Shown here piece by piece: positions 2,719-37,034 of a stretch of DNA of 64,000 bases (position 1 is the stretch's first letter; every line of letters starts with the position of its first letter). The notes beneath the pieces are model-generated. The model saw nothing but the letters and a program-made list of their open reading frames with translations, had not been told where the DNA came from and did no database searches. The stretch comes from Novosphingobium sp. ZN18A2. GTDB taxonomy: Bacteria > Pseudomonadota > Alphaproteobacteria > Sphingomonadales > Sphingomonadaceae. A program made the position numbers and the translations under genes. The stretch is from the NCBI RefSeq assembly GCF_036784765.1, contig NZ_CP136651.1, positions 868,001 through 932,000 on the forward strand. The letters run 5' to 3'.

Positions 2719-3294
2719 ATGTTCATAGAAACCGAAACCACGCCCAATCCGGCCACGCTCAAATTCCTGCCGGGCGAGCAGGTGATGACCGCCGGAACCC
2801 GCGAATTCACGACGCCGGAGGAAGCGGAAGCCAGTCCGCTGGCCGATGCCCTGTTCGCACTGGGTGATGTGACGGGCGTGTTCTTCGGGCGTGATTTCGT
2901 TTCGGTCACGGCCGGTCCGGGCACGCAATGGAGCACGTTGAAGCCGCAAGTCGCTTCGGTCCTGCTCGACCATTTCGTTTCGGGTGCGCCGTTGTTCAGC
3001 GGCGGAAGCGCCGAAGGGATCGCCGTTCCGGGCGAGGACGACATGATGGAAGACGATCCCAATGACGCGGATGTCGTCGCCCAGATCCGCGAACTGATCG
3101 ATACGCGCGTGCGCCCGGCGGTTGCCAACGATGGCGGCGATATCGTCTATCGCGGTTTCCGCGAAGGTGTGGTGTTCCTGAAAATGCAGGGCGCCTGTTC
3201 GGGCTGTCCTTCGTCGACCGCGACGCTGAAGCACGGCATCGAGACGCTGCTGAAGCACTACGTTCCCGAAGTCACGGAAGTCCGCGCCGCCTGA
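2719..3294 (+). CDS. NifU-like iron-sulfur carrier (Nfu/NfuA family)
   Basis: A scaffold or carrier that passes Fe-S clusters to apo-proteins in the cytosol. The protein has an N-terminal Nfu_N domain (FIETETTPNPATLKFLPG at the start) and a C-terminal NifU domain containing the cluster-ligating CSGCPSS (CxxC) before the STATLKHGIE helix. The total is about 191 aa, the usual length. An in-frame ATG lies 12 bp upstream at 2707. I prefer 2719 because family members begin MFI-x-TExTPNPAT. Despite the NifU name nothing suggests nitrogen fixation; these proteins serve housekeeping Fe-S maturation. The Fe-S enzymes MiaB and MoaA are encoded in this window. Confidence 0.92.
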   Translation: MFIETETTPNPATLKFLPGEQVMTAGTREFTTPEEAEASPLADALFALGDVTGVFFGRDFVSVTAGPGTQWSTLKPQVASVLLDHFVSGAPLFSGGSAEGIAVPGEDDMMEDDPNDADVVAQIRELIDTRVRPAVANDGGDIVYRGFREGVVFLKMQGACSGCPSSTATLKHGIETLLKHYVPEVTEVRAA

Positions 3295-3330
3295 CCGGCG
3301 TGGCGCGCAACAACAGGCGAGAATCGATAC

Positions 3331-3924
3331 ATGGCCGAACCGCTCGACGCCCACGCGCTCGATCAGCTTTTCCGCACCGCGCGGACTTATAACGGATACC
3401 TCGACAAGCCGGTCAGCGAAGACCAGTTGCGCGCGATCTGGGATCTGATGAAGATGGGCCCCACGTCCGCCAACCAGCAGCCGGTGCGCATGGTGTGGTG
3501 CGTAAGCCAGGAAGCGAAGGAAAAGCTTGCCGCGCTTGCGGGCGGGACCAATCCCGACAAGATCCGCAAGGCGCCGGTAACGGCGATCATCGGCATGGAC
3601 CTCGATTTTCACGAGCAACTGCCGTGGCTGTTCCCGCACACCGATGCGAAATCGTGGTTCGAAGGCAACGAGGCGCTGCGCGAATCGCATGCGTTCCGCA
3701 ATTCCTCGCTGCAAGGCGCCTATTTCATCATGGCCGCGCGCGCCTTGGGGCTTGATACCGGGCCGATGTCCGGCTTTTCGAACGAGGCGGTGGACAAGGC
3801 GTTTTTCGCCGACCAGCCGCGCGTCCGGTCCAACTTCATCTCGACGCTGGGCTATGGCGATCCCGCGACCATCTTCGAGCGCAGTCCGCGCCCCGAATTC
3901 GAGAAATTCAACCGCATAGACTGA
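3331..3924 (+). CDS. RutE/HadB-type nitroreductase (malonic semialdehyde reductase family)
   Basis: An FMN-dependent nitroreductase-fold oxidoreductase of 197 aa. The N-terminal RTYNGYLDKPVSEDQLRAIWDLMKMGPTSANQQPVR block and the internal LGLDTGPMSGF segment match the RutE subgroup, which in E. coli reduces malonic semialdehyde during uracil catabolism. No other rut gene is present in the window, so the physiological substrate is open and a broader quinone or nitro-compound reductase role is possible. It starts 36 bp after nfu and ends 13 bp before tsaB, so it is probably part of one transcription unit with them. Confidence 0.85.
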   Translation: MAEPLDAHALDQLFRTARTYNGYLDKPVSEDQLRAIWDLMKMGPTSANQQPVRMVWCVSQEAKEKLAALAGGTNPDKIRKAPVTAIIGMDLDFHEQLPWLFPHTDAKSWFEGNEALRESHAFRNSSLQGAYFIMAARALGLDTGPMSGFSNEAVDKAFFADQPRVRSNFISTLGYGDPATIFERSPRPEFEKFNRID

Positions 3925-34354: not shown

Positions 34355-34830
34355 CCCTCGCCGATCAGGATGAAGATGCCCGCGGCATGGGCAATCGGAT
34401 CGTCAAGATCGCCTTCATGGGCAATACCGCGCACAAAGGCCATCGACCGCTTGATCTGATAGCATTCGCCGCGACCGTAGATCTTCTTGCCCGGCGTTGC
34501 GGCGCGCAGATAGTCGATACGCAGATCCAGCGTGACCTGAGGCTGGAACTTTCCGCGCTTCACCCAAACCCCGATCGACGTCGCGTTGTCGAGTAGCGAG
34601 ATGACCGGGCCGGATGCCAACACGCCCGTTTCCGCCATGCCGACCAGGTCTTCGCGCCAGGGCAGGGCAAGTTCCACCCAGTTATCGCCGTGATCGGAAT
34701 ATTCCATCCCGATATAACCGCTGTGGCCGCGCCCCGTCATCGACGAACCCAGGGTTTTCGGATCGAAGTCCCTCGCCAGTTCGGTGAACAGGGCCCACGC
34801 GCTTTTGCTGTTTTCCGGATCGCTCCCCAT
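34351..34830 (-). CDS. PaaI-type hotdog thioesterase (second of pair)
   Basis: A 159-aa hotdog-fold protein with VLASGPVISLLDNATSIGVW in place of the classical HGG helix start, so the active-site region differs from that of its partner. The later strand block VTLDLRIDYLRAATPGKKIYG is typical of the family. It starts with ATG and overlaps the next thioesterase gene. It is divergent from the small-peptide operon at 34949, with 118 bp between them. Confidence 0.87.
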   Translation of the reverse strand: MGSDPENSKSAWALFTELARDFDPKTLGSSMTGRGHSGYIGMEYSDHGDNWVELALPWREDLVGMAETGVLASGPVISLLDNATSIGVWVKRGKFQPQVTLDLRIDYLRAATPGKKIYGRGECYQIKRSMAFVRGIAHEGDLDDPIAHAAGIFILIGEG

Positions 34831-34941
34831 TCCCGGTTCCTGCCTGCCCGCGGATGCTGTTGCAATCTTTTAATTCGCCTGTTTCGCGTGGTTGCGCTCC
34901 TTTCGGATGCCCGGTGCAAGGCCGGTTGCCGAATGGAGAAT

Positions 34942-35109
34942 AACCGAAATGAACCTTCCTGACCTCGCGATCGAAACGCTTCCGGACCTGCCGCTGGAAA
35001 GCGGCGTGTTTGGTTCCACCAGCCGCCCCGACGCAGGGCTTTCGATGGCGGATGACCTTGTGATCGTCATCATGGTCTACACCTACAACCGTAATGAACC
35101 TTCCTGACC
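34942..35109 (+). repeat. 23-bp direct repeat covering the two peptide-gene starts
   Basis: The copies are 34942-34964 and 35087-35109 and match at 22 of 23 positions. Each has AACCG, one variable base, then AATGAACCTTCCTGACC. Each contains the ATG and the codons for MNLPD of one of the tiny ORFs. The second copy also encodes the last residues of the first ORF, in another frame. Confidence 0.9.
34949..35107 (+). CDS. Small peptide 1, putative precursor peptide (52 aa)
   Basis: A 52-aa ORF starting at ATG 34949 with GGAGAA about 9 nt upstream. The N-terminal half is acidic and repeats LPDL (MNLPDLAIETLPDLPLE). The middle is Gly/Ser-rich. The C-terminus is very hydrophobic and then aromatic/polar (LVIVIMVYTYNRNEPS). 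A leader-plus-core layout of this kind is typical of ribosomally made, modified peptides, but no known class signature is visible. An in-frame upstream ATG (34892) would add 19 unusual residues. It overlaps the next tiny ORF by 14 bp. Whether it is translated is inferred. Confidence 0.6.
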   Translation: MNLPDLAIETLPDLPLESGVFGSTSRPDAGLSMADDLVIVIMVYTYNRNEPS

Positions 35110-35168
35110 GGTTGATCATCGTCATGGTCGATATCCACACCCGCTTCCGGGCGGCCCATGCGGATTGA
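35094..35168 (+). CDS. Small peptide 2, putative shortened precursor (24 aa)
   Basis: A 24-aa ORF with the same first five codons as peptide 1 (MNLPD). It is then joined directly to a segment resembling the peptide 1 core: LIIVMVDIHTR aligns with VIVIMVYTYNR (identical I, M, V and R). It has no leader region. Its stop overlaps the start of the HEAT-repeat gene (ATG at 35158), which suggests translational coupling. It may be a real second peptide, a leaderless variant, or only a coupling ORF. Confidence 0.45.
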   Translation: MNLPDRLIIVMVDIHTRFRAAHAD

Positions 35169-36144
35169 CCCCGCGATGGCGGCGCTGCGCGACGATCCTT
35201 CGCCGGTCGTCGCGCAGTCCCGCGCCGCCGGAGAAGCGCTGGATGCCTGGCGCGCGGGTGCCGCGACGCGCGCCGTGCTCGATGCGCTGGACGCCTATGG
35301 CGCCGGCAGGCCGCTGGCCGGGTGCACGGCACTGAACGCGGCAATGGAACCGGAGTCGGCGCGTCATTTCGTCTCGGGCGTCATGGCGGCGCTGGTTGGC
35401 GCAATGCGGTCCGGCCCGCTCGGCCAGCCGCGGCTGGTTTCCTCCAGCGTGGGCGCGATTCACCGGCTGACGCTTGCCGCCAGCGGCCGCGCCGTGCTTT
35501 CGCTGGCGCTGGTTGATGGCGATGCACTGGCGCAAGGGCTCAGCCGGATTTCCCCGCGCGTCGTTTTCCAGCCGGGGGAAACCTGCCTGACCATCTTGTC
35601 GGGGCGAGGGCGGGGACGGATCGCGCGGCTTGGCGCGGGCGACCTGCACCTGCGCCGTGTTGCCTTTCTGCCGGTCGCGCTCAATTCCGGCAAACGGCTT
35701 TTGCTCGATGCCGGGTGCGAAGCGCTCGACCTGCTTGGTGTCGACGGGTCGTTGGTGAGCCTGCGCCTGCATCGCCGCGCGGAGGAGATACAGCCGATCC
35801 GCGAATACGATCTGGAAACGGGCAGCCTGGTCCACCAGTCCGCCGGCGAACCGCGTGAGAGCCGCCTTGCGCTTGCGGCGGCATTGCTGGGTCGCATGAA
35901 GCGGCGCGATGCACTTCCCGCGCTGGGCGCACTGGTGCGCGGCACGGGAAGCGCGGAACTGCGCTGGCAGGCCCTGCGCGAAGCATTGGCGCTCGATACC
36001 GCGCAAGGCTTCGCCCTGTTGCGGGAAATCGCCGTGCGGTGTGACGATCCGCTGGCATCGGCTGCGGTCCGGCTATCGCAGGATCTGTGTGCCCGGCATC
36101 CGCAACTCGCCGCCCTTGCAGGAGACGCGCTTTGCCCCGCGTAA
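35158..36144 (+). CDS. HEAT-repeat protein of the small-peptide operon
   Basis: A 328-aa protein of unknown function. Residues about 20-90 are helical. Residues about 95-225 look beta-rich and could be a cupin-like barrel (ISPRVVFQPGETCLTILSG, LHLRRVAFLPVALNSGKRLLLDAG). Residues about 236-315 are HEAT-like helical repeats (ALPALGALVRGTGSAELRWQALREALALD). The ATG at 35158 lies inside peptide 2, and the end overlaps the next gene by 13 bp, so all four ORFs are tightly linked. I do not recognise a characterised family. A partner or scaffold role for the following protein is an inference. Confidence 0.7.
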   Translation: MRIDPAMAALRDDPSPVVAQSRAAGEALDAWRAGAATRAVLDALDAYGAGRPLAGCTALNAAMEPESARHFVSGVMAALVGAMRSGPLGQPRLVSSSVGAIHRLTLAASGRAVLSLALVDGDALAQGLSRISPRVVFQPGETCLTILSGRGRGRIARLGAGDLHLRRVAFLPVALNSGKRLLLDAGCEALDLLGVDGSLVSLRLHRRAEEIQPIREYDLETGSLVHQSAGEPRESRLALAAALLGRMKRRDALPALGALVRGTGSAELRWQALREALALDTAQGFALLREIAVRCDDPLASAAVRLSQDLCARHPQLAALAGDALCPA

Positions 36145-37034
36145 TCGACTGCGCCGACCAAGGTGCAATTTCGCTGGCCGAATGCACGGACCGGCTGGCC
36201 CGGCGCGGCTTCGACCCGGCCGATGAAGAAAGCCTGCACGAAGCCGCGCGAGACTTGCGTCGGCTGGGCAACGATCGCTCTTTCCTGGGCGATCTTTTGC
36301 TGGATGAGCTTGAGCGTGGATTTTCGGCGGCGGCCGAACATGGCGAAAGCTATGGGCCGCAGGTGGTCATGCTGGCAAATCCGTGTGGCGATTGCTTCCT
36401 GCGTGCCAACATCTGGCCCGCCGCCAGCGAAACGATCCTGCGCGCCAGCGGCGGCGATGCCTTTGCATTCGGATTGCCGCACGATCACAACTTCGATTTC
36501 CTGACGCTCGGCTATTTCGGCCCCGGCTATCGCAGCGACTATTATACCTACGACTATCAGGCTGTTGCGGGCTGGAGCGGCGAACCCGCGCACTTGCACT
36601 TTGTTGAACGCGGCGGTCTGAAAGAGGGCGAGATCATGCTTTATCGCGCGCATCTCGACGTCCACAGCCAGATCCCGCCAGAGGCGCTTTCGGTTTCGAT
36701 CAATGTCATGCACATGGACGCCGCGCAGGGTTGGTTCGATCAGTACGCCTTCGATACGCGGAACGACACGGTACTGCGGATCCTCAGCCAGGGCGCCAAC
36801 GACGTGGTGCTGCGCATGGCCGTGGCGATGGGAAGTGACGATGCGCGCGCACTGGCAGAGGATTTCGGCCTTCGCCATCCCAGCGACCGGATGCGCCTTG
36901 CCGCATGGGACGCGCTGGCGCTGGCCGACCCTGCCCCCGCATCGCGCGTGGCCATCTGGGAGCGGGCAGAGGCGCGCGGAAGCCCGATGGTCTCGCGCGA
37001 GGCGCAGCGCCGACTTGCCCTCATTCCGGCGTAG
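36132..37034 (+). CDS. Cupin-like putative metalloenzyme with HEAT-like tail
   Basis: A 300-aa protein. The core at residues 80-200 holds NPCGDCFLRANIWP, GLPHDHNFDFLTLGYFGPGY (H117, H119), HLHF (H154, H156), a further His pair at 174/178 and H194. Together these suggest a metal-binding cupin or 2-oxoglutarate-oxygenase-like barrel. Residues about 212-300 are helical, HEAT-like. Start TTG 36132 has AGGAG about seven bases upstream. Homologues may carry the label transposase in databases, but nothing here resembles one. Modification of the small peptide is a hypothesis. Confidence 0.7.
   Translation: MPRVIDCADQGAISLAECTDRLARRGFDPADEESLHEAARDLRRLGNDRSFLGDLLLDELERGFSAAAEHGESYGPQVVMLANPCGDCFLRANIWPAASETILRASGGDAFAFGLPHDHNFDFLTLGYFGPGYRSDYYTYDYQAVAGWSGEPAHLHFVERGGLKEGEIMLYRAHLDVHSQIPPEALSVSINVMHMDAAQGWFDQYAFDTRNDTVLRILSQGANDVVLRMAVAMGSDDARALAEDFGLRHPSDRMRLAAWDALALADPAPASRVAIWERAEARGSPMVSREAQRRLALIPA

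What the first reader, a model, noticed from the sequence alone, without database searches (positions are those of the whole stretch)
34949..37034. Overlapping operon of two tiny peptides, a HEAT-repeat protein and a cupin-like protein: candidate new peptide-modification system
Seen: four ORFs in one direction, each overlapping the next (52 aa, 24 aa, 328 aa, 300 aa). The tiny ORFs share the MNLPD start and a related hydrophobic core. The large proteins have a beta-rich core with a HEAT-like tail, and the second has a PHDHNFDF motif plus further His pairs. Inference: the small ORFs may be precursor peptides and the large proteins tailoring enzyme and partner. No lasso, lanthipeptide, YcaO, radical SAM or MNIO gene is present, so known classes do not fit.
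Basis: partly seen in the sequence, partly recalled or inferred. Interest (0 to 1): 0.85.

Follow-up and report, generated by a model that had tools for sequence, protein, structure and literature searches.

The report
Peptide cassette with dioxygenase-fold enzyme pair
This stretch carries a gene for a roughly 50-residue peptide that is kept, side by side with the same two overlapping genes, in many bacteria of one family and apparently in scattered distant ones; the two proteins are predicted to be an iron enzyme and its inactive twin that likely modify the peptide chemically, which would be an undescribed kind of peptide-tailoring system.

Summary
Four overlapping ORFs lie at 34949-37034. 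The 52-aa peptide and genes B and C form a conserved cassette: a peptide profile finds the small ORF upstream of B in 154 of 164 loci, plus three just outside the position cut-off; the only other hits (E<=0.1, 171 loci) are a contig-edge copy and a decayed cassette. Omega is below 1 in 72 of 73 pairs, median 0.30. C (300 aa) is predicted to have the cysteine/thiol-dioxygenase fold, with histidines at the expected iron-ligand positions (near-)invariant. B has the same predicted fold without that motif and is a paralogue of C (hhalign E 2.6e-12). The peptides lack a conserved cysteine, so thiol oxidation is unlikely. Best reading: a RiPP-like system in which C likely oxidises a Val/Ile-rich core and B likely holds the leader. 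NCBI names C relatives 'transposase'; here it is single-copy and syntenic. C relatives are named from Stenotrophomonas, Xanthomonas and Rubrivivax. The 24-aa ORF looks like a partial duplication. No modification, metal or product has been shown.

The parts
34949..35107 (+). Precursor-like peptide gene, 52 aa: leader MNLPDLAIETLPDLPLESGVFGS, linker, core DDLVIVIMVYTYN
   Evidence: Peptide-profile score 59.4 bits; homologous ORF in 154 of 164 loci; omega median 0.30
35094..35168 (+). 24-aa ORF, probable partial tandem duplicate of the peptide gene (start region plus a core copy; most of the leader and the linker missing)
   Evidence: 23-nt repeat with one mismatch, core-like LIIVMV; it fills an unusually long gap (peptide stop 50 nt before B's start; the other 70 genuine picks end between 29 nt before and 11 nt after it)
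34942..34964 (+). First copy of the 23-nt repeat covering the peptide start
35087..35109 (+). Second copy of the 23-nt repeat, start of the 24-aa ORF
35158..36144 (+). Gene B, 328 aa: predicted thiol-dioxygenase-fold protein without the HxH motif, with a HEAT-like C-terminal tail; proposed pseudo-enzyme partner
36132..37034 (+). Gene C, 300 aa: predicted thiol-dioxygenase-fold enzyme with conserved H117, H119, H178; helical tail; relatives named 'transposase' by NCBI

Best explanation
The operon encodes a conserved peptide of about 50 residues and two paralogous proteins, and C, predicted to have the cysteine-dioxygenase fold with a three-histidine iron site, likely uses oxygen to modify the peptide's hydrophobic C-terminal core while its twin B, which lacks the histidine motif, likely holds the peptide's leader. 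SHOWN here: conservation of the peptide, its leader-linker-core pattern and purifying selection; the gene order peptide-B-C, with B and C overlapping or nearly abutting; paralogy of B and C; invariance of H117, H119 and D176 and near-invariance of H178; absence of a conserved Cys in the peptides; residence beside the same housekeeping genes in 51 of 59 long loci. PREDICTED: the folds of B and C. INFERRED: iron binding by the three histidines; that the peptide is the substrate; that B is the leader-binding subunit; that the reaction is an oxidation (hydroxylation, desaturation or cross-link) of Val/Ile or of the terminal Tyr; that the product acts inside the cell, because no transporter or protease gene is in the operon.
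For: Small ORF upstream of B by profile in 154 of 164 loci at E<=0.1 (152 at 0.01); five further hits in 171 loci, of which L002, L040 and L136 also lie upstream of B, L175 lies at a contig edge and L151 is a decayed cassette. In the 296-genome order sample, C is in 97 genomes, the peptide in 92, both in 90; the two peptide-only hits are weak (E 0.004, 0.009) and inside 792- and 649-aa frames. Omega below 1 in 72 of 73 disjoint pairs; mean pN 0.15 leader, 0.30 linker (42 pairs), 0.18 core. C model pLDDT 92.8; the top PDB matches are thiol/cysteine dioxygenases. H117 167/167, H119 167/167, D176 167/167, S187 167/167, H178 166/167, N191 165/167 (three short matches of 170 left out). B-C paralogy: hhalign probability 97.6%, E 2.6e-12 over 264 columns; the C profile hits B of L198 nearly end to end at 4e-10, against a best of 7.5e-4 among 1600 shuffled B sequences. 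In 12 of 12 distant loci an ORF with a B-like (RW/AW-containing) end lies directly before C, and by eye a small ORF with a hydrophobic tail or an LP[DE]-like leader lies upstream in 9 of 12. Any Cys in only 16 of 154 peptides.
Against: No experiment shows modification, metal or product. The profile match of C to 3-mercaptopropionate dioxygenases is not significant (hhalign probability 0.2% with A1, 1.4% with A6), so residue equivalence rests on fold and register. No Pfam dioxygenase model hits any of 74 C proteins. B and C of the window's own family show no profile link, and apart from L198 the next-best B hits of the C profile fall wholly or largely in the C-terminal, mostly HEAT, part. Neither tail is universal: B and C of L184 are only 239 and 234 aa. 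No transporter, protease or recognised RRE is in the operon; an AI-2E transporter and a signal peptidase gene lie 1.5-4 kb away on the other strand. Seven C-positive genomes of the order sample gave no peptide hit. In the most distant loci the peptides are called by eye and share little sequence. A fixed chromosomal place fits a housekeeping peptide as well as a tailored one.
Confidence: 0.6

Rival explanations
1. The peptide is not modified: it is a small third subunit or regulatory peptide that binds the B-C complex and controls or completes it, while C acts on another, unknown substrate.
For: No transporter or protease in the operon. The core is conserved between near relatives almost as strongly as the leader. 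Both the DD start and the Y-[ED] end of the core are strongly conserved in the main clade, as expected of a binding segment.
Against: Between clades the leader motif persists while the core is replaced (DDTIVVIMVYVYE, HPAFVPILVLTVMIA, VFEIAVTIALIIHD), the pattern of RiPP precursors. One candidate precursor has a repeated core-like motif (L202).
Confidence: 0.2
2. An oxygen- or metabolite-sensing module: B, C and the peptide relay a signal to transcription.
For: Nine of 30 divergent loci carry the same gene family after C, and the one member tested is a Trans_reg_C winged-helix protein. Thiol dioxygenases of the ADO/PCO type are known oxygen sensors (recalled).
Against: No such gene lies directly beside the cassette in the window, and the peptides have no conserved Cys.
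Confidence: 0.09
3. The small ORF encodes a toxic or antimicrobial hydrophobic peptide, with B and C as maturation or immunity proteins.
For: Short peptides with Val/Ile-rich C-termini, clearest in some distant loci.
Against: Fixed chromosomal place (51 of 59 long loci keep RuvX and DUF3089 genes alongside) and no export gene in the operon, unlike typical bacteriocin loci (recalled).
Confidence: 0.06
4. The small ORF is only a translated leader for attenuation, or a chance frame.
For: It lies directly upstream of B.
Against: Amino-acid-level constraint (median omega 0.30), conserved leader and core, no Rfam element at 34700-35400.
Confidence: 0.03
5. C is a transposase, as NCBI names its relatives.
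For: Names given by sources.
Against: Predicted thiol-dioxygenase fold, one copy in the genome, conserved synteny, no Pfam or NCBIfam transposase match.
Confidence: 0.01

Closest known systems
Cysteine / 3-mercaptopropionate dioxygenases (PF05995; PDB 4tlf, 6u4l, 8vni)
   Different: No significant sequence match; extra helical/HEAT-like tail; the residues at the SxHxY triad (positions recalled) are S-x-N-x-M; a paralogous partner B; cognate peptide without a conserved Cys
Cupin-like hydroxylase PbsQ / BpmG of the biphenomycin RiPPs (PMC12257519, passages read)
   Same: A cupin-fold protein acting on a ribosomal peptide, in an ORF overlapping its neighbour
   Different: PbsQ is described there as related to a JmjC-domain protein and works with an MNIO, an arginase and a B12-radical SAM enzyme; here no other tailoring gene was found next to B and C
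Aminopyruvatide precursor ApyA with C-terminal YLYD (PMC13192836, passages read)
   Same: Core end [YF]-x-Y-[ED] in much of the main clade looks alike
   Different: ApyA is tailored by an MNIO, a P450 and others, not found here; the motif is not kept in divergent clades
MNIO plus partner-protein RiPP systems such as bufferins (PMC12452194, start of abstract in a search listing; partner role partly recalled)
   Same: Short precursor, iron oxygenase and a dedicated partner protein
   Different: No significant MNIO-type Pfam match for B or C; the partner here is a paralogue of the enzyme; no Cys-rich core

Membership tests
RiPP pathway | Genetically encoded precursor with conserved leader and more variable downstream part | tested here: met
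   Profile and alignment of 154 peptides; leader kept while core type differs between clades
RiPP pathway | Post-translational modification of the precursor by a neighbouring enzyme | not testable with these tools
   Needs expression and mass spectrometry
RiPP pathway | RiPP recognition element (PqqD-like) in the cluster (common, not universal) | tested here: inconclusive
   No Pfam or NCBIfam match in B or C; structural RRE search not run
Thiol dioxygenase (PF05995) | Thiol-dioxygenase cupin fold | tested here: met
Thiol dioxygenase (PF05995) | Family profile match | tested here: not met
   PF05995 is not among the families matched by the 74 C proteins; hhalign not significant
Thiol dioxygenase (PF05995) | Three-histidine iron site | tested here: inconclusive
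   H117 and H119 167/167, H178 166/167, in the register of MDO H97, H99, H150, but metal binding untested
Thiol dioxygenase (PF05995) | Outer-sphere Ser-His-Tyr (numbering recalled from the rat enzyme) | tested here: not met
   By the hhalign register the positions are S189 (165/167 Ser), N191 (165/167 Asn) and 193 (Met 126, Leu 22, Val 15, Ile 2, Cys 1; the one row of 167 left is not shown)
Thiol dioxygenase (PF05995) | Thiol substrate | tested here: inconclusive
   The proposed peptide substrate has any Cys in only 16 of 154 cases, but that it is the substrate is itself inferred
Transposase | Multi-copy or mobile element protein | tested here: not met
   One copy in the genome; conserved neighbours
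MNIO (DUF692) RiPP enzymes | PF05114-type TIM barrel (recalled) | tested here: not met
   No such Pfam match listed for B or C or their alignments; predicted fold is cupin

The most novel reading that the evidence does not exclude
A new class of ribosomal peptide tailoring spread over Alpha- and Gammaproteobacteria: a thiol-dioxygenase-fold heterodimer, one active subunit and one leader-binding pseudo-enzyme with a HEAT tail, that uses O2 and a three-histidine iron to oxidise the Val/Ile-rich core of a cysteine-free precursor, retooling a thiol oxidase into a C-H oxidase of peptides and making a resident, intracellular peptide product of the Sphingomonadaceae.
Probability: 0.45. Interest if true: 0.9.

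Novelty: new variant of a known kind. Interest (0 to 1): 0.8.

Why it matters
A family of at least 2062 protein clusters (E<=0.001 among the 7999 candidates scored) sits in databases as 'transposase' or 'hypothetical', next to a peptide gene that fits a RiPP precursor. If C modifies the peptide, a thiol-dioxygenase fold has been turned to peptide tailoring with a paralogous pseudo-enzyme as partner; no paper listed by my searches describes this (one search listed only 20 of 619). The system is small (three genes, about 2.1 kb), so one co-expression and mass-spectrometry experiment decides it. Its fixed place in the chromosome suggests a physiological peptide rather than a weapon.

Tried and rejected
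Transposase label: rejected. Two precursor peptides: rejected as a general feature; only the 52-aa gene is conserved, and I could not reach the contigs of the nearest relatives (P0002-P0004, 75-76% identity) to see whether they share the 24-aa ORF. B versus C by profile with Sphingomonadaceae sequences alone gave nothing; the link appeared only with distant families. hhalign of C and of B with 3-mercaptopropionate dioxygenases was not significant. PDB sequence search with the C profile found only one E 0.63 match. Rfam and promoter/terminator scans were uninformative. Literature searches for a cysteine-dioxygenase-fold or HEAT/cupin RiPP enzyme listed none; one search looked for biphenomycin/MNIO papers and for small-protein and ribosome-profiling work with sphingomonad names, and none of the 20 listed of 235 holds those genus names. 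Omega over all 8516 pairs (median 0.50) mixes saturated and badly aligned pairs; the nearest-pair value is used instead. First peptide picks L008 (contig edge) and L021 (wrong frame) were dropped before building the profile; eight loci missed by that first filter were recovered later by the profile. The 164 loci come from two genome collections and were not deduplicated by species; 135 of 153 non-window peptides are distinct.

Full report
OBSERVATION. The window lies in a 3.3-Mb single-contig genome that holds one copy of C. The genus is probably Novosphingobium: a same-genus genome carries a protein 100% identical to one whose record name, cut off in the listing, begins Novosphingobium hassi. 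B has a sub-threshold HEAT_2 match and C has no Pfam match; neither has any NCBIfam match.

CONSERVATION OF THE CASSETTE. A scan of genome contigs with C found 117 relatives, of which the best 80 were kept; their titles are Sphingomonadales genera or broader bins. B was found by tblastn in 78 of these 80 (misses L069 and L078), and by profile in those two as well. Small ORFs upstream of B share the pattern M-x-LP-x-I-D-x(3)-LPDLD-x(2)-TG-x-FGS, a variable linker, then DD-[TSR]-four hydrophobics-M-[VT]-[YF]-x-Y-[ED] (single positions vary). A profile built from 70 of the first 72 picks (L008 and L021 dropped) plus the window peptide, and re-built over four rounds, finds the ORF upstream of B in 154 of 164 loci that have B and at least 300 bases upstream (E<=0.1; 152 at 0.01). 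Of the other five hits in 171 loci, three (L002, L040, L136) are also upstream but outside my position cut-off, one (L175) lies at a contig edge and one (L151) is the remains of a decayed cassette. Of the seven loci then left, six (L125, L127, L142, L143, L145, L146) show a candidate by eye and one (L021) does not. Median length is 52 aa (42-62); 128 of 154 have a purine-rich 4-mer in the ribosome-binding position (no background was computed); 16 of 154 contain any Cys.

SELECTION. In 73 disjoint nearest pairs, omega is below 1 in 72 and its median is 0.30. Mean pN is 0.15 in the leader, 0.30 in the linker (42 pairs) and 0.18 in the core at similar pS. So the peptide sequence is kept at the protein level, with a loose linker between two constrained parts.

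LEADER KEPT, CORE REPLACED. In divergent members the leader motif persists while the C-terminal part changes: for example ...AIDIDALPLLDTAVGLFGS...VFEIAVTIALIIHD (L132)...KLDIEEIPQLDVDIN...HPAFVPILVLTVMIA (L145)...SIDINEIPHLDTNV...HPALISLMLLFSIVIR (L146). This is the behaviour of a precursor with a recognition leader. The DD and Y-[ED] of the main clade are therefore not universal; a hydrophobic, often Val/Ile-rich end is common to these examples.

DISTRIBUTION. C is in 97 of 296 genomes of the order, all in the window's own family and one of them (G118) only the decayed remnant, and in 3 of 289 of the class, again all own family; in 99 of 195 genomes of the genus. The peptide profile hits 92 of the same 296 genomes, 90 of them with C; the two others are weak hits inside frames of 649 and 792 aa, and seven C-positive genomes gave no peptide hit. 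This association is partly built in, since the profile comes from such loci; but among the 199 genomes without C only those two weak hits appear. With a wider profile, 16 of 398 phylum genomes match: 13 own-family and three outside the class, one of these weak. Around one outsider, 10 of 250 genomes of its order match, itself included; its C is 100% identical to a Stenotrophomonas record. Other records among 35 relatives are named from Xanthomonas campestris and Rubrivivax; where NCBI names one it says 'transposase', where JGI does, 'hypothetical protein'. Only unnamed or Stenotrophomonas-type loci, not those of Xanthomonas or Rubrivivax by name, were examined for the peptide.

PLACE IN THE GENOME. 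Of 59 long main loci, 51 keep the RuvX and DUF3089 genes and 35 the two 4HBT thioesterase genes seen beside the window's cassette; of 32 divergent 3.9-7-kb loci, 13 keep the thioesterases and 2 the RuvX gene. Vertical residence with losses explains this better than mobility. A signal peptidase and an AI-2E transporter gene are also neighbours in the window, on the other strand; the former is in 51 and the latter in 40 of the 59. I take them as housekeeping genes, but they cannot be excluded as helpers.

DISTANT CASSETTES. In L183, L184, L186 and L198-L206 (12 loci; L186 is a divergent own-family member) an ORF with a B-like end lies directly before C in all 12, recognised by eye, with Pfam HEAT matches checked for two of them. 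In L184 both proteins are short (239 and 234 aa), so the full helical tails are not universal. By eye, and without a statistical test, small ORFs with a hydrophobic C-terminal part lie upstream in L183, L184, L186, L200, L201 and L205, and ones with an LP[DE]/VPDM-like leader in L202, L203 and L204; L206 is unclear and L198 and L199 show none.

THE 24-AA ORF. It starts with a 23-nt near-copy of the peptide gene's start and continues with a copy of the core codons. The peptide gene ends 50 nt before B here, while the other 70 genuine picks end between 29 nt before and 11 nt after the aligned start of B. A partial tandem duplication explains both. Whether it is translated is unknown.

MECHANISM. 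The simplest reading is a RiPP-like pathway: leader bound by the B-C complex, core presented to the iron of C, an O2-dependent change of Val/Ile or Tyr. A non-substrate peptide subunit is the main rival (0.2). A regulatory link is possible: nine of 30 divergent loci have one gene family after C, and the member tested is a Trans_reg_C winged-helix protein.

COMPARISON. A cupin-fold hydroxylase acting on a RiPP is known (PbsQ/BpmG, PMC12257519, passages), and a YLYD core end is known in aminopyruvatide (PMC13192836, passages), but in both cases with other enzymes. C meets the fold but not the profile or triad features of thiol dioxygenases, so it is not filed as one. Searches listed no paper on such a cassette; listings were capped and the library holds only open-licence papers. 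I rate it a new variant of a known kind, because RiPP-like logic is known while this enzyme pair, as far as I could search, is not.

Noticed in passing
L119, L124-L127, L130, L133, L140, L142, downstream of C: A shared gene family follows C in the same direction in 9 of 30 divergent loci; the one tested, from L119, is a Trans_reg_C winged-helix protein, suggesting a regulator in the operon of one clade.
   Followed up: partly
L151 (G118), 2883-3836 minus strand: Decayed cassette: a recognisable peptide frame with a weak remnant of C in the same stop-to-stop frame, and no B found.
   Followed up: partly
L202 (G1335): Two C-like genes close together, one with an upstream small ORF carrying a repeated core-like motif (TLFIFAARK and TAFIFAAQR).
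   Followed up: no
L145 (G074) and L146 (G144): Second, very divergent cassettes in genomes that also hold a closer copy, each with its own leader-bearing small ORF by eye.
   Followed up: partly
C family in public records: NCBI names proteins of this family 'transposase' in several genera, a label that predicted fold, copy number here and synteny contradict.
   Followed up: yes
L155 and L156: A true 3-mercaptopropionate dioxygenase relative sits next to what looks like a rhodanese-type protein gene, and in L156 also next to ABC-transporter-like genes (by eye), in other same-genus genomes.
   Followed up: no
L201, small ORF upstream of B: Candidate small ORF with a long Val/Gly/Ala repeat (AVAIGVAVGVGVAVGLGVGIAV) near its end.
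   Followed up: no
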